Shown here: positions 444 to 24,948 of the stretch, piece by piece
Layout of the letters: each line of letters begins with the position of its first letter
Numbering within the stretch: the stretch's first letter is position 1
Source of the DNA: Brucella pituitosa
Lineage (GTDB): Bacteria > Pseudomonadota > Alphaproteobacteria > Rhizobiales > Rhizobiaceae
Reading direction: 5' to 3'
DNA length: 64,000 nucleotides
Assembly: GCF_003049685.1 (NCBI RefSeq)
Contig: NZ_PYSY02000002.1
Location: forward strand, 620,001 to 684,000
Notes under the pieces: model-generated
What the model saw: the letters and a program-made list of their open reading frames with translations, nothing else
The model's database searches: none
Told to the model about the DNA's origin: nothing
Translations under genes and position numbers: made by a program

Positions 444-446
444 ATC

Positions 447-2965: not shown

Positions 2966-2978
2966 CTTACTATTTAAC

Positions 2979-3021
2979 GCGCATCTTGTCCGAAAACCGT
3001 TTCACACTTTTCGGGATGCGC
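2979..3021. repeat. Palindromic intergenic repeat, copy A
   Basis: Imperfect palindrome with outer arms GCGCATC / GATGCGC and inner arms CCGAAAA / TTTTCGG around the core ccgtttcacac. It lies between the ABC ATPase and the first LLM monooxygenase gene, ending 18 bases before that gene's start. It resembles the copies near 13397, 30619, 42306, 46020 and 50039. Confidence 0.7.
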
Positions 3022-3038
3022 TTCTTGAGGAGATCACC

Positions 3039-4358: not shown

Positions 4359-4359
4359 A

Positions 4360-5742: not shown

Positions 5743-7041
5743 AGGGCGTGGGAGGCCTAGGTGTTCACGCAGCGTGCTGCCCTCGTAATCAGTGCGGAAG
5801 ATACCACGGCGCTGTAACTCAGGCACCAGTCTTTCCGCGACATCATCAAGGCCTTCCGGCAGGAAGGGGAATACAACTGTGAAGCCGTCACTGGCATCCT
5901 CTTCCAGCCACTTCTGCATTTCATCGGCAACGCTTTCGACGGTTCCGACGAAAGCAAGACCTGAATAGCCGCCGTAACGCTGGGCGAGCTGACGGACAGT
6001 CAGCTTTTCCTCTTCGGCCAATTTAAGCACCTGCGCCCTGCCCGACTTGCTTGCGTTGGTTTCGGGAATTTGAGGCAAATAGTCATCTGGATTAAAGCCT
6101 GATACATCATGGCCCAGAGCAATCGACAGCGATGCGATACCGCTATCATAGTGAACAAGACTATCGAGCTTCGCACGCTTCTGCTTGGCTTCCTCAAGGC
6201 TATCGCCAAGGACGATGAAGGCTGCAGGCAATATCTTCAACGACGATGGCGCGCGACCGGCGGCTGCCAAGCGTGACTTCAAATCAGCATAAAGCTTTTT
6301 TGATTCAACAATGTCTCGCGGCGCACAAAACACCACTTCCGCAGTTTCTGCCGCTAGCTGGCGACCCGGTTCTGATTGACCAGCCTGAACAATCACCGGC
6401 CATCCTTGTACGGGGCGAGCGATATTGAGCGGACCACGCACATTGAAATCATCGCCATGGTGATCCAGAACATGCATCTTGGATGGATCAAAGAAGATGC
6501 CGCTTTCCTGATCCCGGATGAATGCATCATCCGCAAAGCTGTCCCAAAGTCCCGTTACAACATCATAGAACTCGCGCGCACGCTTGTAACGTTCGCCATG
6601 CTCGACATGCTCGTCCTTGCCGAAATTAAGCGCTGAGTCGGGATTGGACGTCGTGACAATGTTCCACGCTGCACGCCCCTGACTGATATGGTCAAGCGAG
6701 GCAAAACGTCTGGCAATATGATAGGGTTCATCAAATGTCGTGGAGGCCGTTGCAGCCAATCCGATCTTGTCAGTCACCGCTGCCAGAGCCGACAGCAGCG
6801 TGAATGGTTCAAATGATGTAACTGTATGACTACGCTTCAACGCCTCGACCGGCATGTTGAGGACAGCGAGGTGATCCGCCATGAAGAATGCGTCGAATTT
6901 CGCCGCTTCAAGTTTCTGGGCGAAAGCCTTCAGATGCTTGAAATTGAAATTCGCGTCGGCATAGGCACCGGGATATCGCCAAGCGCCAGTATGCAGGCTT
7001 ACAGGACGCATAAACGCCGTAAGATGAAGAGACTTGTTCAA
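5716..7041 (-). CDS. LLM-class flavin-dependent monooxygenase, NtaA/SnaA/DszA type (third)
   Basis: A 441-residue flavin-dependent monooxygenase convergent with the previous one. Motifs: LTAFMRPVSLHTGAWRYPGA at the N-terminus, FAQKLEAAKFDAFFMADHLA, ASLDHISQGRAAWNIVTTSN, DFNVRGPLNIARPVQGWPV with QAGQSEPG, and the ending LQRRGIFRTDYEGSTLREHL. I chose the TTG at 7041 (reading M-N-K-S-L-H) because AGGA sits about 8 bases upstream and the family homology begins there; a frame open to 7125 adds a tail with no family sequence. It is transcribed away from the small GNAT-fold gene at 7418. Confidence 0.88.
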   Translation of the reverse strand: MNKSLHLTAFMRPVSLHTGAWRYPGAYADANFNFKHLKAFAQKLEAAKFDAFFMADHLAVLNMPVEALKRSHTVTSFEPFTLLSALAAVTDKIGLAATASTTFDEPYHIARRFASLDHISQGRAAWNIVTTSNPDSALNFGKDEHVEHGERYKRAREFYDVVTGLWDSFADDAFIRDQESGIFFDPSKMHVLDHHGDDFNVRGPLNIARPVQGWPVIVQAGQSEPGRQLAAETAEVVFCAPRDIVESKKLYADLKSRLAAAGRAPSSLKILPAAFIVLGDSLEEAKQKRAKLDSLVHYDSGIASLSIALGHDVSGFNPDDYLPQIPETNASKSGRAQVLKLAEEEKLTVRQLAQRYGGYSGLAFVGTVESVADEMQKWLEEDASDGFTVVFPFLPEGLDDVAERLVPELQRRGIFRTDYEGSTLREHLGLPRPSNRFFDGS

Positions 7042-7417
7042 TTGATTGTTCCTGAGGCTATTGCGAAATGAGGTGGGCGCTTCTCGATGAGCGTTTGTCA
7101 GATCGGTGATTTTACGACTACGCACTCATTGAGCTAAGAAATATGATTGCGCAGCCTGCGCCACTCAAGGAATTTGCACTTCATATTTCCGTGATTCATG
7201 GATCATCGTGCTAAGCGCCCGTCACAGAGCAATGTTAGACTCTATCCCAATATCTTGCGTTGGCTTTATTGGGTTTTATCGACAAACTCGACATGGCATA
7301 TTTTAGGAGTGGAACCGACATCGACCTTTGACGTTGAAGATGACGATCCGGCGCACGCCTGAGGACGGAGACGTTTCTACTGAAAAATACAAAGTGGATC
7401 GAAGGGAGGTCAGAGAG
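7042..7417. other. Divergent intergenic region, no gene seen
   Basis: About 376 bases between the divergent LLM monooxygenase and the small GNAT-fold gene. It must hold promoters for both. I find no RNA gene or convincing operator. The only clear signal is the GGGAGGT ribosome site at 7404-7410. Confidence 0.5.
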
Positions 7418-9702: not shown

Positions 9703-10299
9703 TTAAAAGGTTTCGCCACGCAAGTGATTGGCAAGAAAACCGAGATTATCTTGTCCCCAATAGGTCTCCGTATCGTAGATATAGGTCGGAAAACCAAAAA
9801 CGCCCTTATCGACGGCACGTTCGCGATCCGATTTCCACTTGGCCTGAACGTCATGATCATTCTCACGCCCAACCAGATACTGACCGTTGAAACCAGCTTC
9901 ATCGGCCACGGCACTGCGGACTTCCTGTTTGCCAATATCCTTTGCCTCAGACCAGAATGCTTGCTGGAGGGCACGGGTCAGCTGCAGCCAGTTCTGCCCC
10001 TCAAGATAGGCAGCAATCACCGTAAACGAAGCTGGCGTCGGATCGCTTAAAGCTGGGCGCTCATCAATGAACAGCGGCTTGCCACGAAACTTGGCCCAAC
10101 GCTTGAGATCCTGCGTGCCATAAGCGCGACGGGCTTCTGGACGATTGCGCGAAAAGATGCCGCCATTTTCCTCGATGACGGTAGCAAGATAAGGCTTGAT
10201 TTCAACCACATGCCGCTCTGCCAGTTCCTCAAGCGTATCAAGCCCGAGATATGACCAGGGCGAGCCGATGGAAAAGAAATAATCGATAGTTTTTGGCAC
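9703..10299 (-). CDS. DsbA-family / kappa-GST-like protein (2-hydroxychromene-2-carboxylate isomerase family)
   Basis: A 198-residue thioredoxin-fold protein of the DsbA superfamily. The N-terminus IDYFFSIGSPWSYLG matches the active-site region of 2-hydroxychromene-2-carboxylate isomerases and kappa-class glutathione transferases, with Ser where DsbA has CxxC. The C-terminal GVFGFPTYIYDTETYWGQDN holds the cis-Pro and the WGQD motif common to this family. I start it at the GTG at 10299 because AAGGA sits 6 bases upstream. Last gene of the minus-strand run, 34 bases after a binding-protein gene and just before a strong terminator. A glutathione-linked step in handling an S-substituted thiol is a reasonable guess. 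Confidence 0.87.
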   Translation of the reverse strand: MPKTIDYFFSIGSPWSYLGLDTLEELAERHVVEIKPYLATVIEENGGIFSRNRPEARRAYGTQDLKRWAKFRGKPLFIDERPALSDPTPASFTVIAAYLEGQNWLQLTRALQQAFWSEAKDIGKQEVRSAVADEAGFNGQYLVGRENDHDVQAKWKSDRERAVDKGVFGFPTYIYDTETYWGQDNLGFLANHLRGETF

Positions 10300-10333
10300 G
10301 TTCTGTCCTTCGCTATAAGCTTCACTCAAGAAA

Positions 10334-11263
10334 TTATTTAAACTTCGGCAATCCGGGCGGATTGGTTTCCGATTGCTCCAGTGCTTCCTCTTGGAGATGC
10401 CAGCGATCAAGAATGCGCGTATAGTCTCCATTCTTGATCAAACCATTGGTCGCGATGGTCAAAGCATTGGCAAGTCCGCTGCCTTTGCGCGTTGTAATTG
10501 CCACATCCGAGCGATCCGGCCAGCCTGCGCTCAGCGTGCCGACACGTTTGATATTCTTGTCGCGCGAGGCGATGAATACGAGCTGCGCGTGAGGCTGCAC
10601 GATCACATCGGCCCGACCCGATTGTAGAGCCAGAAGGCTGGCAGCCTCATCATCGTAATATTGCAGCTCCAGCGGCTTCAGCCCCGCCTTCTCATTCTCT
10701 TCGCTCCACTTGACCAGAATGCGCTCCTGATTGGTCCCGGCACCCACGATGATGCGGAGGCCTGCCGCATCCTTTGGTTCCTTGATGGAGGTAACGCCAC
10801 TGTCGGCCTTTACGAAGAAGCCATGCAGGCCCTGCCGATAGGTCGAAAAATCGAACTTTTCCTTACGCTCTTCGGTCACTCCAACATTGGATATCACGGC
10901 ATCATATTTGCCCGATGCGAGACCCAGCGGCCAATCGATCCATGCAACCGGAACGCTTTCGAGTTCGAGCCCAAGGCTTTCGGCAATGGCCGACGCATAG
11001 TCTGCATCCGCACCCACAACGGTCTTGGCATCCGTCGCATAAGCTGCAAGCGGCGGACCGCCCGGTGCAACAGCAACAGTCAGTTTGCCTGGTGTGACGA
11101 ATTTGAAATCAGCAGGAATGGCAGCGATTGCTGCGGCATCTTTCTGCACATGAATGCGGCCGGTCTGTTCGGGTGACAAATCAAAATCATCTTCCGAAAA
11201 GGCTGGCAGAGATGAAGCACTTACCAATGCCCATGTAGCTATTAACAGAGCACCTGCTCTCAT
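10334..11263 (-). CDS. Amino-acid ABC transporter periplasmic binding protein (paralogue 3)
   Basis: A 309-residue exported family-3 solute-binding protein. Signal peptide MRAGALLIATWALVSASSLPA-FSE, then the mature N-terminus FDLSPEQTGR shared with its two upstream paralogues. Family marks: AVISNVGVTEERKEKFDFST, GAGTNQERILVKW, YYDDEAASLLALQSGRADV, and the C-terminal TRKGSGLANALTIATNGLIKNG. It is the most diverged of three tandem copies: KFDFSTYRQGLHGFFVKAD against KDELGFYVKAD in the other two. The start ATG at 11263 has GGAGAG upstream. It probably delivers an amino-acid-like ligand to the fused permease-ATPase. Confidence 0.93.
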   Translation of the reverse strand: MRAGALLIATWALVSASSLPAFSEDDFDLSPEQTGRIHVQKDAAAIAAIPADFKFVTPGKLTVAVAPGGPPLAAYATDAKTVVGADADYASAIAESLGLELESVPVAWIDWPLGLASGKYDAVISNVGVTEERKEKFDFSTYRQGLHGFFVKADSGVTSIKEPKDAAGLRIIVGAGTNQERILVKWSEENEKAGLKPLELQYYDDEAASLLALQSGRADVIVQPHAQLVFIASRDKNIKRVGTLSAGWPDRSDVAITTRKGSGLANALTIATNGLIKNGDYTRILDRWHLQEEALEQSETNPPGLPKFK

Positions 11264-11293
11264 GAACCACTCTCCATTTATGTAAAGTACGGC

Positions 11294-11327
11294 GGGCCGG
11301 CACAAACGTCCCCTCTTGTACCGGCCC
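11294..11327 (-). other. Intercistronic hairpin between binding-protein genes
   Basis: Stem GGGCCGG (11294-11300) with CCGGCCC (11321-11327), extended by a partly paired second segment (acaa/ttgt), in the 70-base gap between two binding-protein genes. No T-run follows. Such hairpins often protect the upstream transcript from 3' exonucleases or attenuate the downstream gene. Confidence 0.5.
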
Positions 11328-11333
11328 TGCCCC

Positions 11334-12278
11334 TCACGAACCGCTTTTCGGCAGGCCCTGTGGATTGGTCTTGGCCTCACTGATGGCCTCCGGTCCGAGG
11401 TTCCACGTATCGAGGACCTTGGTATAGGCACCGCTAGCAATCAGATCGTTGAGAACATTGGTCAGCGGCGCTGCAAGTCCGCTGCCCTTACGCGTTGTGA
11501 CCGCAATCTCGGCAGTGATCGGCCAGCCGCCACTGACAGTGCCAACCAGCTTGGTCTTGCCGTTGATGCCTGCAGAATAGGCCTGCGTCGCATTCACGCT
11601 GAATACAGCATCTGCACGGCCACTTTGAATGGCGAGATCTTTGACCGCGTCATCGTCGTAGTATTGCACCTCAATCGGTTTCAGACCGGCTGCAACATTC
11701 TGGCGATCCCATTCCAGCAGCACCTTTTCCTGATTGGTGCCTGCATCGGTGATGATCTTGAGGCCTTCAATATCCTTGGGCTGCTTCAGCTCTTTGATCG
11801 CACTGTCTGCCTTCACATAAAAGCCAAGCTCATCCTTGCGATAGGTGGAGAAATCGAACTTCTCCTTCCGCTCTTCCGTCACTGTGACATTGGAAATCAC
11901 AGCATCGAATTTGCCTGAAGCAAGCCCAAGAGGCCAATCGGCCCAGGCAACCGAAACCAGTTCCAGATCGCGTCCGAGACTATCGGCAATGATCTGTGCC
12001 AGATCGACATCGTAGCCGATGACGGTCTTGGAATCTGATGCATAGTCATGCAACGGCAGATGCCCGCTGGTGCTGATCCCGATGGTCAGAACACCGTCCT
12101 TGACGAATTTGAAGTCCTTGACCTCGTCGATACGCTTATCGAGTTTTTCCACCCGCAAACGGTTGGGCTGTTCAGGACTGAGATCAAATTTGCCCTCACT
12201 CCATGCAGCATTCGTCATCAGCAAAGCCCCTGAAATCAGGCCTGCAGTGAAGTATCCCGCTTTTCTGATATAAGTCAT
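11334..12278 (-). CDS. Amino-acid ABC transporter periplasmic binding protein (paralogue 2)
   Basis: A 314-residue exported family-3 binding protein, with signal peptide MTYIRKAGYFTAGLISGALL and cleavage probably after AAW-S. The mature N-terminus is FDLSPEQPNRLRVEK. Marks: AVISNVTVTEERKEKFDF, STYRKDELGFYVKADSAI (identical in the next paralogue), DAGTNQEKVLLEW, VQYYDDDAVKDLAIQSGRAD and the GSGLAAPLTNVLNDL tail. Ribosome site AAGGAG 8 bases before the ATG. Second of three consecutive copies served by one permease-ATPase. The ligand may be an S-substituted cysteine, judged only from the enzymes upstream. Confidence 0.94.
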   Translation of the reverse strand: MTYIRKAGYFTAGLISGALLMTNAAWSEGKFDLSPEQPNRLRVEKLDKRIDEVKDFKFVKDGVLTIGISTSGHLPLHDYASDSKTVIGYDVDLAQIIADSLGRDLELVSVAWADWPLGLASGKFDAVISNVTVTEERKEKFDFSTYRKDELGFYVKADSAIKELKQPKDIEGLKIITDAGTNQEKVLLEWDRQNVAAGLKPIEVQYYDDDAVKDLAIQSGRADAVFSVNATQAYSAGINGKTKLVGTVSGGWPITAEIAVTTRKGSGLAAPLTNVLNDLIASGAYTKVLDTWNLGPEAISEAKTNPQGLPKSGS

Positions 12279-12353
12279 ATTCCCATCTCCTTGAGTGTAA
12301 AACTCTGTGTAATGACCTGATTTCTTTACATTTCGCCCCGTTACGAGCGGATC

Positions 12354-13295
12354 TTACGATCTGCTTTTCGGCAATCCGGCAGGGTTGGTTTTGGCCTCAT
12401 CAACGGCTTCTGAACTCAGGCTCCAACGCTGAAGCACCTGATGATATTTGCCGTTCTTGATGAGTTCATTGAGCGAGAGCGTCAGCGTATCGGCCAGACC
12501 GCTGCCCTTGCGTGTGGTGATTGCCACCTCGGCCGTCTGCGGCCAGCCACCGCTTACCGTTCCCACAAGCTTGGTTTTACCGTGCTGCGATGCAGCATAG
12601 GCCTGCACTGCATTGACGCTGAAAACCGCATCTGCACGACCGGAATCAATCGCCAGGCTCTTGACGGCATCATCGTCGTAATACTGAATTTCTACGGGCT
12701 TCAGGCCCGCTTCGACGTTCTGCTTGTCCCATTGCACAAGGATGTTTTCCTGATTGGTGCCTGGATCGGTGATGATTTTGAGACCCGCAATGTCCTTCGG
12801 CTCTTTCAGCGACGTGATCGCACTGTCGGCCTTCACATAAAAGCCAAGCTCATCCTTGCGATACGTTGAAAAGTCGAACTTCTCCTTGCGCTCTTCGGTT
12901 ACGGTCACATTTGAAATAACCGCATCGAACTTGCCAGATTGAAGCGAAAGCGGCCAATCCGCCCAGGCGATTGGCACCAGCACAAGCTCACGGCCCAATG
13001 CATCGGAAACCAGCTGAATAAGATCGGGATCGAAAGCCACGACAGTCTTTGCATCGGTTGCATAAGTGCTGATCGGAGGCACCCAGGGATTAATGCCGAC
13101 GACGAACTTGCCGTCCTGCACAAACTTGAAATCCTTGGGAACGGCATTGACGACGGCTTCGCTCTTTTCCGTGCGCAAACGGTTTTGCTGCTCCGGGCTA
13201 AAATCAAGCTCTGCAGAAAAGGCTGGCGCGCTGAACAGCGTTGCTGCTGCCAGAAAGCTGCCCAATATTGCGTTCTTGTAGTTGACTGATTTCAT
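12354..13295 (-). CDS. Amino-acid ABC transporter periplasmic binding protein (paralogue 1)
   Basis: A 313-residue exported family-3 binding protein, first of three tandem copies. Signal peptide MKSVNYKNAILGSFLAAATL with cleavage near AFS-A; mature start LDFSPEQQNRLRTEK. It shares long identical stretches with paralogue 2 (AVISNVTVTEERKEKFDFST, KDELGFYVKADSAI) and the same YYDDDAVKSLAIDSGRADAV segment, so these two are the younger duplication. The start ATG at 13295 follows CAGGAGT; an extension upstream has no signal peptide and runs through a palindromic repeat, so it is rejected. Confidence 0.94.
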   Translation of the reverse strand: MKSVNYKNAILGSFLAAATLFSAPAFSAELDFSPEQQNRLRTEKSEAVVNAVPKDFKFVQDGKFVVGINPWVPPISTYATDAKTVVAFDPDLIQLVSDALGRELVLVPIAWADWPLSLQSGKFDAVISNVTVTEERKEKFDFSTYRKDELGFYVKADSAITSLKEPKDIAGLKIITDPGTNQENILVQWDKQNVEAGLKPVEIQYYDDDAVKSLAIDSGRADAVFSVNAVQAYAASQHGKTKLVGTVSGGWPQTAEVAITTRKGSGLADTLTLSLNELIKNGKYHQVLQRWSLSSEAVDEAKTNPAGLPKSRS

Positions 13296-13396
13296 TGAAT
13301 GACTCCTGAGAATAATCTGAATTTTGGACAAACAATCCCTGTCGACTGCCCCGTCAGGGCAATCGTAAGTGTCGGGAGTTGTGGTTTGGATCCTGA

Positions 13397-13435
13397 GCGC
13401 ATCCCGAAAAATGAGAACCGATTTTCGGAATGCGC
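13397..13435. repeat. Palindromic intergenic repeat, copy B
   Basis: Arms GCGCATCCCGAAAA and TTTTCGGAATGCGC flank the core tgagaaccga. It lies between the fused permease-ATPase and the first binding-protein gene, so it is transcribed as part of the operon. Confidence 0.75.
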
Positions 13436-13458
13436 TTAACAAAGCGGGCGTTCTGGCG

Positions 13459-15261
13459 TCAGAGGACTTTTGCGAGAAACTCCCGGGTTCGGGGATGCGT
13501 TGCCGCATTGAAAAGCTGCTCTGGCCTGCCGGTTTCGAGAATACGGCCCTCTTCCATGAACACCACCGTATCCGCCACTTCACGGGCAAAGCCGATCTCA
13601 TGGGTTACGATGACAAGCGTGGTGCCAGAGCGTGCAAGCTCCTTGATGACATCCAGCACTTCACCAACCAGTTCCGGGTCGAGCGCCGAGGTTGGCTCGT
13701 CGAACAGGATGACTTTTGGATTGAGTGCCAGAGTGCGGGCGATGGCGACACGCTGTTGCTGACCGCCGGAAAGCTGGCGCGGATAGGCATTGATTTTTTC
13801 GCTGAGACCAACGCGGGCAAGCAGGCGTTTTGCAATCACGGTCGCGGCATCGCGGCTCAGCCCACGGACAATCATCGGTGCTTCGATGATGTTTTCCAGC
13901 ACGGTCAGATGCGGGAAGAGGTTGAAGTTCTGAAACACCATGCCGACATCGACGCGCTTTTTCAGAATGTCTTTCTCTTTCAATTCGTAGAGGGTGTTGC
14001 CGCTCTGGCGATAGCCCAACAGCTCGTCATCAATCGAGATGAAGCCGTCATCCACGCGCTCCAGATGATTGATGGATCGCAGCAATGTCGACTTGCCCGA
14101 ACCCGATGGACCTAGGATTGCAGTCACACTACCGGGCTTGATGTGCAGGCTGACATTGTCGAGAACGAGATTGTTGCCGAAGCTCTTCGATACCCCATGA
14201 ATATCCACCGCACCGCGTCGCGTACCTGTGAACCCGCTGACAGCAAGTGTTTCGGTAATCCGCGCATCCTGTTCGCTCGATGCAACATTCTCCGCTTTGC
14301 TCGATACGGGGCCTTTTGCTGGAACGAAACGAGCGAACAGGCGTGTCAGAATGGCTGGCGGCGGATTGCGCAATGCACCGCGCGAGAAATGGCGTTCGAT
14401 GTAATATTGCGCGATCGACAGCACCGTCATGATGATCAGATACCAGACGGTTGCGACCATCAGCAGGGGAATAACTTCGAGGTTGCGGCGGTAGATGACC
14501 TGCACCGTGTAGAAGAGTTCCGGCAGCGCAAGCACGTAGACCATCGATGTGCCTTTAGCGAGACCAATGATCTCGTTGAAGCCCGTTGGAAGGATCGTAC
14601 GCATGGCCTGCGGAAGCACGATGCGGAAGGCTTGTCTGCGTCGTGGCAAGCCGAGAGCGGCAGCAGCTTCGAGCTGACCCTGATCGACGGACAGAATACC
14701 GCCGCGGATGATTTCGGACGAGAACGCAGCCTGATTGAGACTCAAGCCCAGAAGGGCGGCAGCGAACGGACTGAGGATCTGAACGGTTGGATATTCGGCA
14801 AAAGTGATATCCGTGTAAGGAACACCAAGCCTAACAGTTTCATATAGATAGCCGAGATTGTTCAGAACAAGAAGCAGGACGATCAGTGGAATGGATCGCA
14901 GCAGCCAGATATAGGCCCAGGAAAGACCGGATAGTAGCGGCGAGCGTGAAACGCGCGCCAGTGCAAGGGCTGTGCCCAACGCAAAACCGAGAACTGTTGC
15001 GAGCGCCGTCAGCCACAAAGTCCGCATCAATCCTACAAGGACGGGCTCAGACAGAAACCATTCAGCAAAGACCGGCCAACCCCATTTCGGATTTGTCAAA
15101 ACAGACTGGATAACCGCGATAATCAGTCCTGCGGCAAAGATTGTTCCAATCACGCGCGCCGGATAACGCGCCGGAACGATCTTGTAGTGCTTGAAGTCGC
15201 CCGGACTTACGCGGGAAGTATCTTCCCTATCTGTCCCTACAAAATCTGTAGCAATTGCCAT
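13459..15261 (-). CDS. Amino-acid ABC importer: fused permease and ATPase
   Basis: A 600-residue fusion. The N-terminal half (about 1-300) is a polar-amino-acid permease: helices, LWLTALATVLGFALGTALAL, and the loop LEAAAALGLPRRRQAFRIVL with PQAMRTILPTGFNEIIGLAK (HEQRM-type permease signature). A linker of about 50 residues leads to a complete ATPase (about 345-600): Walker A GPSGSGKST, Q-loop VFQNFNLFPHLTV, signature LSGGQQQRVAIA, Walker B VILFDEPTSALDP, H-loop VTHEIGF. It needs only a binding protein to work, and three are encoded downstream. ATG at 15261 taken as start; a TTG two codons earlier (15267) sits nearer to GGAG and is possible. Confidence 0.92.
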   Translation of the reverse strand: MAIATDFVGTDREDTSRVSPGDFKHYKIVPARYPARVIGTIFAAGLIIAVIQSVLTNPKWGWPVFAEWFLSEPVLVGLMRTLWLTALATVLGFALGTALALARVSRSPLLSGLSWAYIWLLRSIPLIVLLLVLNNLGYLYETVRLGVPYTDITFAEYPTVQILSPFAAALLGLSLNQAAFSSEIIRGGILSVDQGQLEAAAALGLPRRRQAFRIVLPQAMRTILPTGFNEIIGLAKGTSMVYVLALPELFYTVQVIYRRNLEVIPLLMVATVWYLIIMTVLSIAQYYIERHFSRGALRNPPPAILTRLFARFVPAKGPVSSKAENVASSEQDARITETLAVSGFTGTRRGAVDIHGVSKSFGNNLVLDNVSLHIKPGSVTAILGPSGSGKSTLLRSINHLERVDDGFISIDDELLGYRQSGNTLYELKEKDILKKRVDVGMVFQNFNLFPHLTVLENIIEAPMIVRGLSRDAATVIAKRLLARVGLSEKINAYPRQLSGGQQQRVAIARTLALNPKVILFDEPTSALDPELVGEVLDVIKELARSGTTLVIVTHEIGFAREVADTVVFMEEGRILETGRPEQLFNAATHPRTREFLAKVL

Positions 15262-15440
15262 GATCAACGTCGCTCCGAAATATCATTTAACTTATGATCC
15301 AATACAGACGCGTCTGCCATGGAAGTCACTGAACTCGATATTCGGAGAAGAGAGGATAAGTTTCAAAACAAATAAGTCTATTTAAACACTGTTGAATGGA
15401 TGTTTTTTCCATTATTCGCGATCATCTGTCACGCATTGAC

Positions 15441-15983
15441 TTAACCTGAAGCTGCCTTTTTCAATTCATTATCGACAGTGTGAAAATCGACTTCATGAAT
15501 ATTATGAAGGCTCTTCTCAAAAGGAAGTGTCCCATAAATTTCCGGATCAGCGGACACATCAAAGAGCGCCGTATATCCGTTTCTTAAGTAAAGCTCTTTG
15601 GCTTCCGGCTGCCGGAAACCGGTGGTCAGATAAACGCGCTTGTAACCCTGACGATGCGCCTGCGCTTCCAGCTCTTCAAGCACCCTTTTGGCCAACCCCT
15701 GTCGGCGCAAATTGCTATGCGTCCAGATGCGCTTGAATTCGGCTGTAACATCGTCATAGCGCATGAATGCACCGCCACCGATTGTCAGGCCATCACGGAG
15801 CAGCAGCAGGAAATTGCCGTGCGGAGGCGCGAAGGCTTCCGGCGGATATTTGTTCATTTCCGCAGCCGCACCTTCGTCACTGAAATAATTACCGTAGCGC
15901 GTGTCATACTCGATTGTCAGCGCCTCGATCAGCGGCACTGCACGAATGTCAGTCGTTGAAGTGTAGAGAAATTCATCCGCCAT
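15441..15983 (-). CDS. GNAT-family N-acetyltransferase
   Basis: A 180-residue GNAT acetyltransferase. The acetyl-CoA-binding motif A is clear: FKRIWTHSNLRRQGLAKRVL (R-R-Q-G-L-A), followed by AHRQGYKRVYLTTG and the motif B-like KELYLRNGYTAL. It lies 16 bases after the M20 amidohydrolase gene and before the amino-acid importer. In the Bacillus ytm and yxe operons an acetyltransferase of this size N-acetylates S-substituted cysteines before oxidative cleavage, and the same role is inferred here from gene order. Direct substrate evidence is lacking. Confidence 0.9.
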   Translation of the reverse strand: MADEFLYTSTTDIRAVPLIEALTIEYDTRYGNYFSDEGAAAEMNKYPPEAFAPPHGNFLLLLRDGLTIGGGAFMRYDDVTAEFKRIWTHSNLRRQGLAKRVLEELEAQAHRQGYKRVYLTTGFRQPEAKELYLRNGYTALFDVSADPEIYGTLPFEKSLHNIHEVDFHTVDNELKKAASG

Positions 15984-15999
15984 GATATGGACTTCCGTA

Positions 16000-17190
16000 T
16001 CAGTTGAGAGAAGCTTCGGTCAGACGCACCCAGAACAGGGCTGCTGGCAGTAAGATATTATCGTTGAAATTATAGTCAGGACTATGCAAACCGGCGCTGT
16101 CGCCATTACCGATGAAGAAATACGTCCCCGGTTTCTGTTCGAGCATGAAGGCAAAATCCTCACTGGCCGTGCGCGGTCGGAAATCTTCGATGACAGTGCC
16201 GCTGGAGAAAGTGCCGAGCGCGACCTGTCGTGCAAAATCCGTCTCGGCTTTTGCGTTGATCAGCGCAGGAAAGCCCCACTGATAATTGACATCAGCAACA
16301 GCACCAAAACTTTCGGCCTGAGAACGCGCGACAGCTTCAATCCGCCGCCGCAACTCTTCACGTACAGTTTGCGAGAACGAGCGAATGGTAATGCCAAGAT
16401 CGACATGCGCTGGAATGACATTCAACGCATCGCCGCCATGAATGGAGGCCACCGTCACCACACCCATATCAAGCGGATCGAGATTGCGCGCGACCACCGT
16501 TTGCAGGGCCAGAACAATGGATGAAGCAACCACAACCGGATCGACCGACTTGTGCGGCTCCGCACCGTGACCACCACGCCCGTTTACGCGAATTCTTGCA
16601 CGGTCTACCGATGCCATCGCGGGGCCGGTCACAAAACCAAATTTTCCTGCGGGCACACCCGGCCAGTTATGCAGCCCATAAACGGCATCGCACGGAAAGC
16701 GCTCAAAGAGGCCGTCTTCGATCATGCGTCGGGCACCTGCCCCGATCTCCTCAGCAGGCTGGAAAATGAGATGCACAGTGCCGGAAAAACGACCGGACTG
16801 GGCGAGATAGCGAGCCGCTGCCAGCAGAATGGTCGTATGTCCGTCATGGCCACATGCGTGCATCACACCGGAATTACTGCTTGCATAATCGAGCCCGGTA
16901 TCCTCGATGATCGGCAGGGCGTCCATGTCCGCCCTGATGCCGATGGTCTTGCTGGAGTTGCCACGCTTCAATGTGCCAACGACGCCAGAACCGCCAACGC
17001 CGGTTGTAACGTCGTAGCCCCACTGACTGAGATGGTCCGCCACCAGAGCAGAGGTCCGTGTCTCCTTGAACGCCAGCTCCGGATGGGTATGAATGTCGCG
17101 ACGCAAAGCGATAAACTCGTCGATAAACGAGGCAAGACCTGCCTCGATTTCCAGTTTCCGGTTTGCATCTGGCGACCGTTGAATATTCAT
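16000..17190 (-). CDS. M20-family amidohydrolase (N-acyl-amino-acid / hippurate hydrolase type)
   Basis: A 396-residue metallo-amidohydrolase. Metal-site motifs: DMDALP (89-94), HACGHDGH (111-118), PAEE (145-148), and near the C-terminus [15 protein letters not shown]. The dimerisation lid carries [14 protein letters not shown]. Length and motifs fit the HipO/AmaB/YtnL group that removes N-acyl groups from amino acids. The start overlaps the stop of the LLM monooxygenase by four bases (ATGA). It likely deacetylates N-acetylcysteine or a relative released by the monooxygenase, by analogy with YxeP/YtnL. Confidence 0.93.
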
Positions 17191-18542
17191 GCCGCACCCT
17201 TTCGGTGACTTCCGGCATCATTGTTTTCAACGGGCTTCGCATAACGGCTCTGCGGATGCTCCAACCCAAGATTTCTGCGCAGCGTATCGTGTTTCAGGCT
17301 GCCTTCATGATATCCGCGTTCTTCCAGAATTGGCAGAACATGGGCAATGAAATCATCCAGCCCTTCGGCAATCACCGGGAAACCAAGGATGAAACCGTCA
17401 GCAGCCTTCTGCTCTTTCCAGAGAATGATTTCGTCAGCAATCTTCTCTGCCGTGCCGATGAAGGACGTGCGTGGTGTGGCTACATTCAAGGCCACTTCAC
17501 GCAAGGTCAGCTTATTCTCAGACGCGTCACGCTTGATCCGATCCGTTGTCGAACGGAAGCTGTTCTTGCCGACATCGCCAAGATCAGGGAACGGCGCATC
17601 GAGATCATAGGCGGTAAAATCATGATGATCAAAGAAACGACCGAGATAAGAGAGCGCCTCATTCACGCTCACCAGATTACGGATCGCCTGATATTTCTCT
17701 TCGGCCTCTGCATCGGTTCGCCCGACTATGGGACCAATGCCGGGATAAATGCCGACATCATCCTGCGAACGCCCATGCGCAACAGCGCTAGCTTTGATCT
17801 GCGCATAAAATGTCTGGCTGTCCTTGATGGTGCCCGCATTGGTGAACACGGCGTCCGCGTGTTTACCCGCAAGTCCGACACCCGCCTCGGAAGCACCGGC
17901 CTGAAAGATGACAGGCTGGCCCTGAGGGGAGCGCTGGATATTAAGCGGCCCTTCAACCGAGAAAAAGCGCCCCTTATGGTCGAGCCGATGGAACCCTTCA
18001 GGCTTGTAAAACTGCCCGCTCTCACGATCACGAACGAAGGCGTCTTCATCCCATGAATCCCAAAGGCCTTTGGTCACGTCGAGGTATTCATCGGCGATTT
18101 CATAACGCAGAGCGTGCTCGGGATGCGGTTTGCCATAGTTGCGGCCTGACCCTTCGAGCGGCGATGTCACCACGTTCCAGCCCGCACGCCCGCCTGAGAT
18201 GAGATCAAGCGATGCGAACTGTCGTGCAACCGTAAATGGATCGCTATAGGACGTCGAAACCGTGCCTGCCAGACCAATGCGCTTCGTGTTCGCTGCGAGC
18301 GCCGAAAGCACGGTCAAAGGCTCAAAGCGATTGAGAAAATGCGGAATGGAAATCTCGTTGATATAGAGCCCGTCTGCGATGAAGGCGAAGCTGATGCCAG
18401 CCTCTTCGGACTTGCGTGCCGCATCAATGAAAAACTGGAGGTTCACACTGGCATCTGCCGGCCCGGATGGATGTTTCCAGGCATTCATATGTCCGCCTGC
18501 ACCCTGCAACATCACACCGAATCTAATCTGCTTGGAACTCAT
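17187..18542 (-). CDS. LLM-class flavin-dependent monooxygenase, NtaA/YtnJ/YxeK type
   Basis: A 451-residue flavin-dependent monooxygenase. N-terminus [20 protein letters not shown] holds the AWKHP mark; then [52 protein letters not shown] with QAGASEAG, and [20 protein letters not shown] at the end. Start at 18542 has GGGAG 9 bases upstream. Translationally coupled to the M20 gene. Enzymes of this type in Bacillus (YxeK, YtnJ) attack N-acetylated S-substituted cysteines, so this is the best candidate for the C-S cleaving step of the cluster. It needs a flavin reductase, which is not encoded nearby. Confidence 0.92.
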
Positions 18543-18573
18543 TTGAGGTACTCCCTATAGCCAGTGGCTTTGA

Positions 18574-19587
18574 TCAGGCGGCAATAGCCAGACGTTCGCC
18601 TGCGAGGCTTTCGATGGCAGCTAATCTTTGCTCATGTGAAACGGCGGGGAACTCGAGCACAAACTCGGTCACCCCATATTGCGCATGCAGCTCATCGAGC
18701 TTCTGCTTCACCTGTTTTGCTGAGCCTGCGAGCACATTTGGATGCTTTTCTTCAATGCGATAATCAGTCTCTCCAGCCTGACGCGCAAACTCGGCGGCGG
18801 CTTCCGGAGTGCCTACTGAAACCGATGTTCCAGAGGAGAGATGAACCTTGAAGATCTTGATTTTCGAGACTGCGGCATCAACCGCGTCTTGGCTCTCGGC
18901 AACCACTGCACCAAGCGCCAGCACCGGCACTTTTCCAGTCACATTGCGATAGGCGTCGAAGGTCTTTTGCAAATTGGCAGTATCGCCGTTCAAATGACCG
19001 GCATAGACAAAATCCCAGCCGGAATGTGCGGCAAGCAACGCGCTTTCAGGGCTTGCACCTAGCACAAATTTTTCCGCAGACGCCTGTGGTTTGGGGGTTG
19101 CGGCCAGTCCTTCAAACGGACCGGAAGCGATCTTGTCACCACCAAGAAATGCGCTGAGCTGTTCAAGCTTGCTGTTAAAATCGAGCCGCTTTTCGCTGCC
19201 TGTTTCCTGCTGCAAGGCCTTGGTTGACAATGGAAGTCCGCCCGGAGCCTTGCCGACACCGAGATCAACGCGGCCGCGCCCAAGGGCGGCTAGAAGGTTG
19301 AAGTTTTCGGCAACTTTGTAGGGGCTGTAATGCTGAAGCATCACGCCGCCAGAACCAATTCTGATCCGCTTTGTCGATGCCAGAAGATAGGAAACAAGCA
19401 CCTCGGGCGAAGGTCCGGCCAGCTCATCCGCGTGATGATGCTCCGCAACCCAAAAGCGTTTGTAGCCCGCTTGCTCCGCAGCCTGAGCATAAGACACAGT
19501 ATTCGCAAGGGCGGTTTCCGCATTACCAGCCTGTGCTACCGGGCTCTTGTCGAGAAGGCTTAACTGATAGGGCATTGGCGCATCCAT
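18574..19587 (-). CDS. LLM-class oxidoreductase, MsnO8 / YtmO type
   Basis: A 337-residue luciferase-like protein of the shorter, MsnO8-type subfamily. Marks: YQLSLLDKSPV at the N-terminus, KRFWVAEHHHADELAGPSPE, IRIGSGGVMLQHYSPYKVAE, GRGRVDLGVGKAPGGLP. It leads a minus-strand run and lies 31 bases before the NtaA-type enzyme. In Bacillus the ytm operon also pairs one MsnO8-like (YtmO) with one NtaA-like enzyme (YtnJ). The start could be the ATG at 19587 or 19575; neither has a strong ribosome site. Substrate unknown. Confidence 0.9.
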   Translation of the reverse strand: MDAPMPYQLSLLDKSPVAQAGNAETALANTVSYAQAAEQAGYKRFWVAEHHHADELAGPSPEVLVSYLLASTKRIRIGSGGVMLQHYSPYKVAENFNLLAALGRGRVDLGVGKAPGGLPLSTKALQQETGSEKRLDFNSKLEQLSAFLGGDKIASGPFEGLAATPKPQASAEKFVLGASPESALLAAHSGWDFVYAGHLNGDTANLQKTFDAYRNVTGKVPVLALGAVVAESQDAVDAAVSKIKIFKVHLSSGTSVSVGTPEAAAEFARQAGETDYRIEEKHPNVLAGSAKQVKQKLDELHAQYGVTEFVLEFPAVSHEQRLAAIESLAGERLAIAA

Positions 19588-19809
19588 TTTCGCTGAGCAT
19601 CAGATTTTTGAGGCGGAGCCTTCTGTGCAGCGCGCACGAGCACAGACCAGCCGAGCATAGTTTCTCGACTTCGCGACAAAATCTCAAAGATCAGGCGACT
19701 GAAATATGCAGTGTTGAGGCAAATTTATTCTTTGTGGATGGAATATGTTGAAATGGACAGCTTGGTGACTGTCGCTCCACCGGTCTTGATAAAAATGATA
19801 GATAGACTC

Positions 19810-19840
19810 TCGCAGCGGCTAAAATGCACTGCCGCTGCGA
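19810..19840 (-). terminator. Hairpin downstream of the amino-acid operon
   Basis: Perfect 10-bp stem TCGCAGCGGC (19810-19819) / GCCGCTGCGA (19831-19840) with an 11-base loop, 18 bases after the stop of the last gene of the 25.4-19.9 kb operon. The T-run on the minus strand is displaced (about 20 bases on), so termination is likely but not certain. The remaining 220 bases up to 19588 presumably carry the promoter of the MsnO8-type gene. Confidence 0.55.
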
Positions 19841-19858
19841 TCCATTCTCGTGTCGAAC

Positions 19859-20584
19859 TCAGAGATAACGGCGTGGGTTGGCTGCCAGATAGAAAGTATT
19901 GATCAGCGTGTTGATGTCGAACACCGGTAAACCGGATTCAGCAGCCACATAGGACGAAAACGGGCACATATTTGTGCATTCAAACAAGATCGCGCCCGGA
20001 TTTTCACAGCTCACCATGAACTCCCGCGTCATTTCCAGCATCTCTTCCTTCAGCACTTCTGTGTCGAGATAATCGCGGCCTTCGATATAGGTTTGCGGAA
20101 ATTCAGCATTCTGCTTCATGCCCTGCACCTGCACAGGAATAACCTCAGATGACCAGCCAACACCTTTGAAATGTGCGTCATTCATATGATGCGCGCGCTC
20201 GGTAAAGACGCCGATGACTTTGCCAGGAGCCAGCATTGCATGAATAATCGGTGCCTGCATCAAGGACGAAGTGAAGACCGGAATGTTGACCGCTGCTGCG
20301 ATATCTTTCTGAAACGGCCCAAGAAAGCCGCAACTCGTGGTAATGGCGCGAACGCCTTCCGCTTCCAGCTCGCGCGCGGCTTCGATAAAAGGCTCAATCA
20401 GCTTGGGATCAGGATTATTGCCCATAATGCGTGTGGCATGAGCACCTTTCACCGTCTTGTAGCGAACGGGAAAATCATAGGACAGGGCATTGCCAATATC
20501 GCCAGCCGGACGAGGGAAAATCGTATCCAGCATAAGAACGCCGATCTGCTGGCCATAATTGGTGTAGCCACCTTTGAGCATCAT
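19859..20584 (-). CDS. Asp/Glu/hydantoin racemase-family protein (second of two)
   Basis: A 241-residue cytoplasmic protein of the aspartate/glutamate racemase superfamily. The two catalytic cysteines are recognisable in TTSCGFLGPFQ (about residue 90) and ECTNMCPF (about 200). N-terminal IGVLMLDTIFPRPAGDIGNA is shared in outline with the paralogue at 23360-24073 (LGVIMLDTGFPRPPGDVGNP). Ribosome site AAGGAA upstream. Last gene of a seven-gene operon with an amino-acid importer and a DadA-type oxidase. It may isomerise an acidic or modified amino acid, or be a lyase of the related maleate/arylmalonate group. Confidence 0.85.
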   Translation of the reverse strand: MMLKGGYTNYGQQIGVLMLDTIFPRPAGDIGNALSYDFPVRYKTVKGAHATRIMGNNPDPKLIEPFIEAARELEAEGVRAITTSCGFLGPFQKDIAAAVNIPVFTSSLMQAPIIHAMLAPGKVIGVFTERAHHMNDAHFKGVGWSSEVIPVQVQGMKQNAEFPQTYIEGRDYLDTEVLKEEMLEMTREFMVSCENPGAILFECTNMCPFSSYVAAESGLPVFDINTLINTFYLAANPRRYL

Positions 20585-20610
20585 TGTTTTATTCCTTTGG
20601 ATTAAGAAAA

Positions 20611-21867
20611 CTAGTGACCGAAGCGAGAAGGCGAGAAGACGCGAGCGCTTTCGGAAGGTAGGTTGTTGATTTCATCGAACACCATATCGGCGGTCTTGGG
20701 GGCTGCAGCGATCCCGATATGACCATGACCGAAAGCTGCTATAATTCCGGGATGGCGTGTGAGTTTTCCAATCACCGGAATCCCATCGGCAGGCGATGGC
20801 CGGTGCCCCATCCAAAGTTTCATATGCTGCAAATCATGCTTTGCCAGATTGGGATAACTCGCCAGCGCGTGTTTCAGCAGCACTTCTGAACGTCTCCAGT
20901 CGGGAGCTTTCTCTACAGTTGCCAGTTCAACCTGACCGGAAAGCCGCAATCCCATATTGGTCGGCGTATTGCCCATTCTCCCGGTGCTCGGCATGATCGG
21001 GATATCGAAGGGGACCTCTGTCATCGGCAGGGTTACGTGATAGCCGCGCTCGCTCTGCATAGGCACATGCATGCCGAGATCGTGCATAATACGCCCCGAA
21101 TGGATGCCTGCTGCCAGCACAATATGATCGGCGGCAATACTCTCATCATTATCGAGCACAACACGCGGCGAAACACTGGTGAGAATTCTCACGATATTCC
21201 TTCGGATGAAGCGAACACCTGCCTTTTCAGCCTGCGCTGCGATACCTGCGACATAACCTCCAGTATCGAGACAATGTGCGCCTTCTGTCACATGTATGGC
21301 AAAGCGATAGTTGCTCCCAAGCGCCGGGATACGTTCACGCAGTTCCGCTTCCTGCCACTCGTCGAACAGGATGCCGTTATCGCGACGCAGCTTCCAGCTA
21401 AGTGCTTCGACCTCAAATGCAGCCCTGTCAGGATAGGCGTAAAGCAAACCCTTCTGCACAATGAGGTGTTCCTGCCCGGTCTTGCTGGCCAGCTCAAGAT
21501 GCCGTTTTGGTCCGTCATTGAGCAACCAGTTGAGCTTGGCCGCAGTTTTCGTCACGCGTGATTTGGTTGCGCCTGCAAGCAAAAACCGCATCAACCACGG
21601 CGTCAGTCTTGGAACCGATTTCCAATCAAGGGTCAGCGGCCCATTGCGATCAAGCAGAAAGCCCGGCACCTGCCGCCATAGTCCCGGCATACTCATTGGA
21701 ATGATCGAAGCTGGGCTGATCCAGCCACCATTCCCGTAGCTTGCACTTTGCTCACCACCCGGCTGTGAGCCATCACACAGCGTAACCTTCAGGCCTGCCT
21801 CAGCAAGCCGCAAGGCGGTTGTGGAGCCGATAATGCCAGCCCCAACGACAATAACATTGCCTGTCAT
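20611..21867 (-). CDS. FAD-dependent D-amino-acid dehydrogenase-like protein (DadA family)
   Basis: A 418-residue flavoprotein of the DAO/DadA family. The FAD-binding Rossmann motif is at the N-terminus (VVGAGIIGSTTALRLAEAG, with G9-A-G11-I-I-G14), then SASYGNGGWISPASIIPM matching the DadA signature, and a C-terminal MGHRPSPADGIPVIG then AFGHGHIGIAAAPKTADMV with the second FAD contact. It would oxidatively deaminate an imported amino acid to a keto acid, passing electrons to the respiratory chain. Gaps of 26 bases to both neighbours show it is in the operon with the ATPase and the second racemase. Confidence 0.9.
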   Translation of the reverse strand: MTGNVIVVGAGIIGSTTALRLAEAGLKVTLCDGSQPGGEQSASYGNGGWISPASIIPMSMPGLWRQVPGFLLDRNGPLTLDWKSVPRLTPWLMRFLLAGATKSRVTKTAAKLNWLLNDGPKRHLELASKTGQEHLIVQKGLLYAYPDRAAFEVEALSWKLRRDNGILFDEWQEAELRERIPALGSNYRFAIHVTEGAHCLDTGGYVAGIAAQAEKAGVRFIRRNIVRILTSVSPRVVLDNDESIAADHIVLAAGIHSGRIMHDLGMHVPMQSERGYHVTLPMTEVPFDIPIMPSTGRMGNTPTNMGLRLSGQVELATVEKAPDWRRSEVLLKHALASYPNLAKHDLQHMKLWMGHRPSPADGIPVIGKLTRHPGIIAAFGHGHIGIAAAPKTADMVFDEINNLPSESARVFSPSRFGH

Positions 21868-21893
21868 GACATTTATCCGTTCTGCACGTGCAT

Positions 21894-22664
21894 TTATGCG
21901 AGGCCGCCATGGAAATGGCTTAAGAACTCACGGGTTGCAGCTTCGCGCGGTTCATTGATCACCTGACGAGCATCGCCGGTTTCAACGACGTAACCGTCCT
22001 GCATAAAGATGACTTTGTCAGCGACATCGCGCGCGAAAGCCATTTCATGGGTGACAAGGATCATCGTCATGCCCTGCTCGGCCAGTTGCCGGATGACCGC
22101 CAGAACTTCACCGACCAGCGCCGGATCGAGTGCCGATGTCGCTTCATCAAACAGCATCACGTCGGGACGCATTGCGAGTGCTCTCGCAATCGCCACACGC
22201 TGTTTCTGACCGCCGGAAAGCTGCTCAGGTCTGGCGTCGGCACGAGCTGCAAGCCCAACCTTCTCCAGCAGTTCCATAGCCAGTTGACGCGCTGCCCTTT
22301 TGTCCTGCTTGAGAACAGTGACCGGCCCGATCATCACGTTATCGAGGACACTCATATGCGGAAACAGGTTGAAGTTCTGGAACACCATCCCGGTATTGGC
22401 GCGGAATGCCGCGAGATATTTGTCTTTAAGCGACACGTTCCCGGACGAGAAATCTATCTTCTGCTCACCAATTGCGATGTAACCCCCATCGGGCAGCGAA
22501 AGCAGATTGAGACTGCGCAACAGCGTTGATTTGCCGGAGCCGCTTGGTCCGATAAGCGCTACTACCTGTCCTCGCTCGACAGTGAGGCTGATATTGCGCA
22601 GCACCTCGATGTCGCCGAAAGACTTTTTCAGCCCACGCACTTCAATCATCGGTTCAGCACTCAT
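21894..22664 (-). CDS. Amino-acid ABC importer ATPase
   Basis: A 256-residue ATPase of the polar-amino-acid (GlnQ/HisP) type. Walker A GPSGSGKST (39-47), Q-loop VFQNFNLFPHMSV, signature LSGGQKQRVAIA, Walker B VMLFDEATSALDP, H-loop VTHEMAF. It carries Ala in place of the usual Pro after DE, a common variation. It partners with the permease encoded immediately upstream and the binding protein at 24087. Confidence 0.94.
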   Translation of the reverse strand: MSAEPMIEVRGLKKSFGDIEVLRNISLTVERGQVVALIGPSGSGKSTLLRSLNLLSLPDGGYIAIGEQKIDFSSGNVSLKDKYLAAFRANTGMVFQNFNLFPHMSVLDNVMIGPVTVLKQDKRAARQLAMELLEKVGLAARADARPEQLSGGQKQRVAIARALAMRPDVMLFDEATSALDPALVGEVLAVIRQLAEQGMTMILVTHEMAFARDVADKVIFMQDGYVVETGDARQVINEPREAATREFLSHFHGGLA

Positions 22665-22703
22665 GGCTTATCTCCACAATGACGGTTCGCTCAATACGGT
22701 TCA

Positions 22704-24073: not shown

Positions 24074-24086
24074 GATGGTGGACGCG

Positions 24087-24920: not shown

Positions 24921-24948
24921 TGTTGTTTCCCTCTTTTTGAATCGAGCA

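What the first reader, a model, noticed from the sequence alone, without database searches (positions are those of the whole stretch)
9703..19587. Candidate salvage cluster for S-substituted cysteines in an alphaproteobacterium
Seen: on one strand, a MsnO8-type LLM oxidoreductase, an NtaA-type LLM monooxygenase, an M20 amidohydrolase, a GNAT acetyltransferase, a fused amino-acid permease-ATPase, three binding proteins and a DsbA/kappa-GST-like protein. Known: Bacillus ytm and yxe operons combine an acetyltransferase, LLM monooxygenase, M20 deacetylase and amino-acid importer to use S-methyl- or S-(2-succino)-cysteine as sulfur source. Inference: the same chemistry here, but with a different transporter layout and a thioredoxin-fold accessory protein instead of the glutaredoxin-like YtnI. 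No flavin reductase is encoded nearby.
Basis: partly seen in the sequence, partly recalled or inferred. Interest (0 to 1): 0.72.

Follow-up and report, generated by a model that had tools for sequence, protein, structure and literature searches.

The report
Alphaproteobacterial S-alkylcysteine salvage gene module
A conserved block of genes in a bacterium that appears related to rhizobia probably imports cysteine carrying an unwanted group on its sulfur, acetylates it, cuts the group off with two flavin enzymes and returns plain cysteine, as Bacillus does, but with different protecting and deprotecting enzymes.

Summary
In detail: nine genes on the minus strand (window 9703-19587) encode two LLM flavin monooxygenases, an M20 amidohydrolase, a GNAT, a fused amino-acid permease-ATPase, three binding proteins and a kappa-GST/HCCA-isomerase-like protein. 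It is not chance: around the 13 other close LLM relatives found among 397 sampled same-order genomes, LLM-LLM-GNAT-permease/ATPase recurs in 13 and M20 in 12. It also sits on Rhizobium, Ensifer and Sinorhizobium plasmids, sometimes beside an FMN reductase, gamma-glutamylcyclotransferase or cystathionine beta-lyase gene. Trees put the two LLM proteins in the Bacillus YtnJ (CmoJ) and YtmO (CmoO) clades, with the one YxeK used outside. The thioredoxin-fold protein has no cysteine, so it cannot replace YtnI as a dithiol; a glutathione-dependent role is inferred. Substrate and activities are untested. A new variant of a known kind.

The parts
18574..19587 (-). LLM_O: MsnO8-family FMN-dependent monooxygenase, CmoO (YtmO) clade; proposed S-oxidation step
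   Evidence: TIGR03558 312 bits; 42% to B. inaquosorum YtmO, the best match among the Bacillus ORFs fetched; clade of 33 with YtmO, 100/99, outside which stand four other Bacillus MsnO8-type proteins and one of the window genome's own
17187..18542 (-). LLM_J: NtaA/DmoA-family FMN-dependent monooxygenase, CmoJ (YtnJ) clade; proposed oxidative C-S cleavage
   Evidence: TIGR03860 512 bits; PDB best 3sdo (named nitrilotriacetate monooxygenase) 627 bits, YtnJ 1tvl 536 bits, next different protein 322; 54% to YtnJ against 46% to YxeK; clade 96/96 with YtnJ, YxeK outside
16000..17190 (-). M20-family amidohydrolase; proposed N-acetylcysteine deacetylation
   Evidence: TIGR01891 353 bits; best PDB match YxeP 1ysj; motifs HACGHDGHT and QPAEE present (metal-site role recalled); tree places it with M20 proteins of its own genome
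15441..15983 (-). GNAT N-acetyltransferase; proposed N-acetylation of the imported amino acid
   Evidence: PF00583 48 bits; AlphaFold2 GNAT fold, pLDDT 86.8; same family as the Pantoea-cluster GNAT
13459..15267 (-). Fused amino-acid ABC permease-ATPase
   Evidence: BPD_transp_1 and ABC_tran domains; ATPase half scores best with TcyN, 314 bits, below its cutoff of 406, with EhuA close behind at 300
12354..13295 (-). SBP1: family 3 solute-binding protein (longest ORF runs to 13601; probable start near 13295)
   Evidence: PF00497 82 bits; shorter orthologues
11334..12278 (-). SBP2: family 3 solute-binding protein
   Evidence: PF00497 85 bits
10334..11263 (-). SBP3: family 3 solute-binding protein (longest ORF runs to 11440; probable start near 11263)
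   Evidence: PF00497 84 bits; some orthologues 309 aa long
9703..10299 (-). Kappa-GST/HCCA-isomerase-like DSBA-fold protein, cysteine-free (longest ORF runs to 10431; probable start near 10299)
   Evidence: PF01323 87 bits; the five PDB matches are HCCA isomerases and kappa or mitochondrial GSTs; SIGSPWS in 9 of 9 aligned (L037 has SLGS); 198-residue orthologues without cysteine
19588..19858 (-). Upstream region with conserved blocks (around 19718-19731, AGAATAAATTTGCC, and neighbours); likely promoter/operator of the module
   Evidence: Alignment of 10 same-genus upstream regions: 57 invariant columns, 52 of them before the LLM_O start codon; no Rfam match there

Best explanation
A CmoO/CmoJ-type salvage operon. 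The three binding proteins and the fused permease-ATPase import an S-substituted cysteine or its sulfoxide. The GNAT N-acetylates it. LLM_O with FMNH2 and O2 makes the sulfoxide. LLM_J cleaves the sulfoxide C-S bond to an aldehyde and N-acetylcysteine sulfenic acid. A thiol reduces the sulfenic acid, possibly glutathione held by the kappa-GST-like protein. The M20 enzyme then removes the acetyl group to give cysteine. Shown here: the gene content, its conservation, and the clade membership of the two LLM enzymes. From published Bacillus chemistry (PMC10863075): the reactions. Inferred: that each alphaproteobacterial protein does the matching step, the role of the kappa-GST-like protein, and the substrate, for which plant S-alkylcysteines such as S-methylcysteine are a guess.
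For: LLM_J: 54% to YtnJ/CmoJ, clade 96/96, YxeK outside. LLM_O: CmoO/YtmO clade 100/99. In the 13 same-order loci fetched besides the window's, LLM_O lies directly before LLM_J in 13, GNAT follows in 13, permease-ATPase in 13, M20 in 12. Flavin, cysteine or glutathione genes beside the module elsewhere: MsuE FMN reductase and gamma-glutamylcyclotransferase, cystathionine beta-lyase, cysteine synthase. The published pathway has just these steps: acetylation, sulfoxidation by CmoO, cleavage by CmoJ, reduction, deacetylation (PMC10863075; parts 1 and 2 of 3 read). YtnL, of the ytn cluster, is an N-acetylcysteine deacetylase (PMC12757645, Results part 1 of 2 and Discussion read).
Against: GNAT and M20 do not group with YtmI/YtnL, so their chemistry is assumed from context. 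The best solved relative of LLM_J, 3sdo, bears the depositors' name nitrilotriacetate monooxygenase. M20 is missing in L121 and Roseomonas L094; L129 shows only LLM_O, LLM_J and GNAT, L130 LLM_J alone; two same-genus loci (L037, L039) lack an adjacent LLM_O. The kappa-GST-like gene is in only 2 of 13 same-order loci, so it is an accessory. No flavin reductase is inside the module. No activity or phenotype was tested.
Confidence: 0.8

Rival explanations
1. It is a YxeK-type (scm/yxe) module that breaks down S-(2-succino)cysteine: GNAT acetylates, LLM_J oxygenates the succino-carbon in one step, M20 deacetylates.
For: Same acetylate-cleave-deacetylate logic (PMC9706529, abstract, one Results section and Discussion read); LLM_J is still 46% identical to YxeK; M20's best solved relative is YxeP.
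Against: LLM_J groups with YtnJ and not with YxeK (only one YxeK in the tree, on a longish branch); a CmoO-clade LLM, not seen in the Bacillus yxe locus L083, is adjacent; LLM_b at 4267-5742 is the closer YxeK relative, 52%.
Confidence: 0.08
2. The LLM pair attacks some other organosulfur or N-substituted amino acid (sulfone, aminopolycarboxylate), and GNAT/M20 protect or process an unrelated amino acid.
For: TIGR03860 is named for NtaA and DmoA, and the best solved match of LLM_J, 3sdo (627 bits), is named nitrilotriacetate monooxygenase; GNAT and M20 belong to broad families and do not group with YtmI/YtnL.
Against: The dimethyl-sulfide, EDTA and dibenzothiophene monooxygenase chains score 206-256 bits against 536 for YtnJ; neighbours in other genera include cysteine and glutathione enzymes.
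Confidence: 0.1
3. The natural substrate arrives already N-acetylated (mercapturic acids), so the M20 does the essential step and the GNAT serves another end.
For: Mercapturates would enter at the N-acetyl stage (recalled chemistry); a GNAT paralogue sits in a neighbouring LLM cluster with no M20 match beside it.
Against: The importer is an amino-acid type (SBP_bac_3, TcyN-like ATPase); GNAT is the more constant partner, 13/13 against 12/13 in the order, and three loci (L121, L129, L094) keep GNAT without M20.
Confidence: 0.06

Closest known systems
Bacillus subtilis ytmI-ytnM operon, S-alkylcysteine salvage by CmoO and CmoJ (PMC10863075; operon and gene names partly recalled)
   Same: CmoO- and CmoJ-clade LLM enzymes, a GNAT, an M20 hydrolase and an amino-acid importer with more than one binding protein in one cluster
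   Different: GNAT and M20 come from other branches; permease and ATPase are fused; three binding proteins; no CxxC glutaredoxin-like YtnI, instead a cysteine-free kappa-GST-like protein in the window's genus and some Rhizobium and Ensifer
Bacillus subtilis scm/yxe operon, S-(2-succino)cysteine breakdown (PMC9706529, PMC12757645)
   Same: Acetyltransferase, NtaA-type LLM, M20 deacetylase and ABC importer
   Different: LLM_J is outside the YxeK branch; a second, CmoO-clade LLM is present; the GNAT profile does not find YxeL (E 0.62)
Pantoea plasmid cluster (L093, L098)
   Same: CmoO-clade and CmoJ-clade LLM and a GNAT of the window's family
   Different: M20 groups with YtnL/YxeP (96/92); permease and ATPase are separate; other gene order; no DsbA-family gene annotated in the stretch

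Membership tests
CmoO/CmoJ S-alkylcysteine salvage | CmoJ-clade NtaA-type monooxygenase | tested here: met
   Clade with Bacillus YtnJ 96/96, YxeK outside
CmoO/CmoJ S-alkylcysteine salvage | CmoO-clade MsnO8-type monooxygenase beside it | tested here: met
   Clade with YtmO 100/99; adjacent in the window and in 13 of 13 other same-order loci fetched
CmoO/CmoJ S-alkylcysteine salvage | Acetyltransferase orthologous to YtmI | tested here: not met
   Profile search E 0.011 to YtmI, 0.62 to YxeL, 1.7e-49 to the Pantoea GNAT; hhalign with YtmI 87% over the GNAT core only. A GNAT is present, but of another subfamily
CmoO/CmoJ S-alkylcysteine salvage | M20 deacetylase orthologous to YtnL | tested here: not met
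   Clade with YtnL/YxeP without the own-genome M20s rejected, p-AU 0.00128, group named after seeing the first tree. An M20 hydrolase with the conserved motifs is present
CmoO/CmoJ S-alkylcysteine salvage | Dithiol (CxxC) glutaredoxin-like YtnI | tested here: not met
   YtnI has CSYC; the window's thioredoxin-fold protein has no cysteine
CmoO/CmoJ S-alkylcysteine salvage | Sulfoxidation and C-S cleavage of N-acetyl-S-alkylcysteine | not testable with these tools
   Needs enzyme assays
scm/yxe S-(2-succino)cysteine module | YxeK-clade monooxygenase | tested here: not met
   LLM_J falls in the YtnJ clade. Only one YxeK sequence (B. inaquosorum) was in the tree
Kappa-GST / HCCA isomerase | DSBA fold with a serine motif instead of CxxC | tested here: met
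   PF01323; PDB sequence matches to both groups; SIGSPWS in 9 of 9, no cysteine
Kappa-GST / HCCA isomerase | Glutathione binding | not tested
   The AlphaFold2 model was poor, pLDDT 61; no fold search was run with it

The most novel reading that the evidence does not exclude
Alphaproteobacteria built a second version of the CmoO/CmoJ pathway: the two flavin enzymes are shared with Bacillus, but acetylation and deacetylation were taken over by separately recruited enzymes, and in the window's genus and some rhizobia the sulfenic acid (or the released aldehyde) is handled by a cysteine-free, glutathione-dependent kappa-GST-like enzyme. On plasmids of plant-associated bacteria it serves to take sulfur from plant S-alkylcysteines and their sulfoxides, such as the gamma-glutamyl-S-methylcysteine that bean seeds store.
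Probability: 0.35. Interest if true: 0.62.

Novelty: new variant of a known kind. Interest (0 to 1): 0.45.

Why it matters
It extends a recently described C-S bond cleavage pathway to a conserved, often plasmid-borne module of alphaproteobacteria, and suggests which part is the fixed core (two flavin enzymes) and which parts are exchangeable (acetylase, deacylase, thiol reductase). It offers a function for genes annotated only as 'LLM class oxidoreductase', 'M20 aminoacylase' and 'DsbA family protein', and a testable link between rhizobia and plant S-methylcysteine pools. PMC10863075 already calls the pathway widely distributed in soil bacteria, which limits the surprise.

Tried and rejected
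Shared operator: the conserved blocks upstream of LLM_O were sought in the flanking LLM island L010 (14-base word at up to 2 mismatches, 31-base word at up to 3), 0 matches; within the window the 14-base word had 2 matches, one of them its own site, against 0.54 expected. Upstream regions of nine plasmid clusters share at most one 9-base word with the window's. Riboswitch: one match, a tRNA, reached Rfam's gathering score in the window.

GNAT substrate by fold: the model is good (pLDDT 86.8), but Foldseek's best matches are GNATs of varied or unknown substrate (3lod, HP0935, PaiA and others), so nothing on the substrate follows. The kappa-GST model was poor (pLDDT 61), so I did not run a fold search with it.

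Second operon 19859-25127 as part of the module: rejected. It lies beside the module in the window and in 3 of the 14 other same-genus loci (L026, L027, L030); it was not seen in the other 11, several of which are cut short by contig ends or by the stretch fetched.

Published report of this module in alphaproteobacteria: none seen in the title listings. These cover open-licence PMC papers only, and searches listed only 15 of 2,120 and 10 of 173 papers. The 2022 Biochemistry paper on cysteine dealkylation was not looked up; the 2022 FEBS J and 2018 JBC papers are not held.

The alliinase of Ensifer adhaerens (PMC3159909, passages only) was considered as the product of the 'cystathionine beta-lyase' gene beside the Ensifer modules; the passages give no gene or sequence, so this stays open.

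Naming the organism: two short stretches of the window's genome against the plasmid collection gave only 77-80% matches to a catalase gene, or nothing.
Full report
What is there. On the minus strand of window 9703-19587 lie, in order of transcription, LLM_O (MsnO8 family), LLM_J (NtaA/DmoA family), an M20 amidohydrolase, a GNAT acetyltransferase, a fused amino-acid permease-ATPase, three family 3 solute-binding proteins and a DSBA-fold protein. LLM_J and M20 overlap by 4 bases; the largest gap between the listed ORFs, GNAT to permease-ATPase, is 173 bases. The DSBA-fold protein matches HCCA isomerases and kappa-type glutathione transferases among solved structures and keeps SIGSPWS in 9 of 9 aligned relatives. 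Its 198-residue form has no cysteine.

Not chance. LLM_J was sought in three samples of whole genomes; counts include the window's own genome. It was found in 15 of 60 relatives (E up to 1e-120), 14 of 397 genomes of the order (E up to 1e-150) and 3 of 385 of the class (E up to 1e-150). I fetched DNA around the 14 + 13 + 2 hits outside the window's genome and looked for the module's genes on the same strand within 9.5 kb. Of the 13 same-order loci, LLM_O was present in 13, GNAT in 13, permease-ATPase in 13, M20 in 12, a third LLM (LLM3) in 11 and the kappa-GST-like gene in 2. Of the 14 same-genus loci, M20, GNAT and permease-ATPase were present in 13 (the other, L034, ends 188 bases after LLM_J), LLM_O directly before LLM_J in 12 (not L037, L039) and the kappa-GST-like gene in 12 (not L034, L038). 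Of the 2 other class loci, one shows LLM_O and GNAT but no M20 or permease-ATPase, the other none of them. In the plasmid collection 582 records hold a match at E up to 1e-80, 155 of them with a best place at 60-80% identity. I opened 12, chosen by hand. Eight have LLM_J at 69% identity or more; 8 of these 8 have LLM_O, GNAT and permease-ATPase, 7 have M20 and 5 the kappa-GST-like gene. Two Pantoea records (57%) have a related cluster in another order, Paenibacillus (61%) a mixed one, and Paracoccus (50%) shows only an ATPase match.

Neighbours. Beside the module elsewhere stand genes of flavin, cysteine or glutathione metabolism: msuE FMN reductase and gamma-glutamylcyclotransferase on three Rhizobium plasmids, cystathionine beta-lyase on two Ensifer plasmids, and cysteine synthase in Roseomonas and in 4 of the 13 same-order loci, one of these on the other strand.

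Relation to the Bacillus pathways. I fetched the ytm/ytn operon of Bacillus inaquosorum (L040) and its yxe operon (L083); Bacillus gene names are given by position and likeness, partly recalled. LLM_J is 54% identical to YtnJ and 46% to YxeK; LLM_O is 42% to YtmO, its best match among the Bacillus ORFs fetched. In a tree of 66 proteins (68 hits before duplicates were removed), LLM_J lies in a clade of 42 with YtnJ of Bacilli, the Pantoea proteins and the alphaproteobacterial module copies (96/96); the one YxeK lies outside a clade of 44 (100/98) (the program flags several long branches, YxeK among them). In a tree of 38, LLM_O lies in a clade of 33 with YtmO (100/99), outside which stand four other Bacillus MsnO8-type proteins and one of the window genome. 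That YtnJ is CmoJ and YtmO is CmoO is recalled. PMC10863075 (parts 1 and 2 of 3 read) gives the steps: acetylation, stereospecific sulfoxidation by CmoO, C-S cleavage by CmoJ to an aldehyde and N-acetylcysteine sulfenic acid, reduction, deacetylation. PMC12757645 (Results part 1 of 2 and Discussion read) shows that ScmP (YxeP), YhaA and YtnL are N-acetylcysteine deacetylases.

What does not match. A profile of the window's GNAT family, run over a small set of ORFs from the fetched loci, finds YtmI at E 0.011 and YxeL at 0.62, but the Pantoea-cluster GNAT at 1.7e-49; some Psychrobacillus and Paenibacillus cluster GNATs come between (3e-5 to 1e-3). hhalign still pairs the family with YtmI over the common GNAT core (probability 87%, 89 columns). 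The M20 groups with the window genome's own M20 proteins (98/97), and a tree uniting it with YtnL, YxeP and the Pantoea M20 without these is rejected (p-AU 0.00128; four rows were dropped from the 38 before this test). The group was named after seeing the first tree and long branches are present, both of which weaken the test. Two further Bacillus M20 proteins (L071, L074) fall on the module's side with weak support (81/24); I did not establish whether one is YhaA, so N-acetylcysteine deacetylation by the window's M20 remains open. If the acetyl-protection steps occur here, they use separately recruited enzymes. The kappa-GST-like protein cannot act as a dithiol like YtnI (CSYC). A glutathione-dependent reduction of the sulfenic acid, or handling of the released aldehyde, is my inference.

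Substrate. Unknown. Import is of amino-acid type. Plant S-alkylcysteines are plausible because the module occurs on plasmids of legume symbionts; bean seeds store gamma-glutamyl-S-methylcysteine (PMC6572574, passages), and a gamma-glutamylcyclotransferase gene lies beside the Rhizobium modules. This is a hypothesis.

Reduced flavin. The module has no reductase. The genome holds five PF01613 matches, one of them in the LLM island about 9.4-9.8 kb left of the window, and eight PF03358 matches elsewhere.

Verdict. It works like the Bacillus S-alkylcysteine salvage and shares its flavin-enzyme core, but it is a variant with other accessory enzymes. Nothing was tested at the bench.

Noticed in passing
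Window 1-7125 and G000:C2:610188-620000 (in L010): The module lies in an island of LLM genes: 9 of the genome's 14 Bac_luciferase matches fall in C2:611030-639539. Left of the module are an Opp-type transporter and LLM_a, LLM_b (52% to YxeK) and LLM_c; outside the window are a GNAT paralogue, an LLM 55% identical to the third LLM of the Rhizobium modules, an MsnO8 LLM and a flavin reductase. It could be a second route for peptide-bound or succinated cysteines.
   Followed up: partly
19859-25127: A separate minus-strand operon: a PF01177 Asp/Glu-racemase-family protein, an NF005679 'hypothetical protein', a D-amino-acid dehydrogenase-like FAD protein, an amino-acid ABC ATPase (best NCBIfam match TcyN, below cutoff), a permease and a binding protein. 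It adjoins the module in only some same-genus genomes.
   Followed up: partly
19588-19858: Conserved blocks in the module's upstream region in ten same-genus sequences, next to diverged DNA. The regulator is unknown.
   Followed up: partly
L091, L099, L100 downstream of the module: On these Rhizobium plasmids the module is followed by msuE (FMN reductase) and gamma-glutamylcyclotransferase. Bean seeds store gamma-glutamyl-S-methylcysteine (PMC6572574, passages).
   Followed up: partly
L089 and L092 at about 18720-19914: On two Ensifer plasmids a 'cystathionine beta-lyase' gene directly follows the module. An alliinase acting on S-alkylcysteines and their sulfoxides has been purified from Ensifer adhaerens, gene not given in the passages seen (PMC3159909).
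   Followed up: no
G000 contigs C1 and C2 ends: M20 matches at C2:13514 and C2:1681972 have the same score, as have LLM matches at C1:24557 and C1:2442130. This suggests untrimmed overlapping ends of circular replicons, which may account for the listed 5.55% contamination.
   Followed up: no
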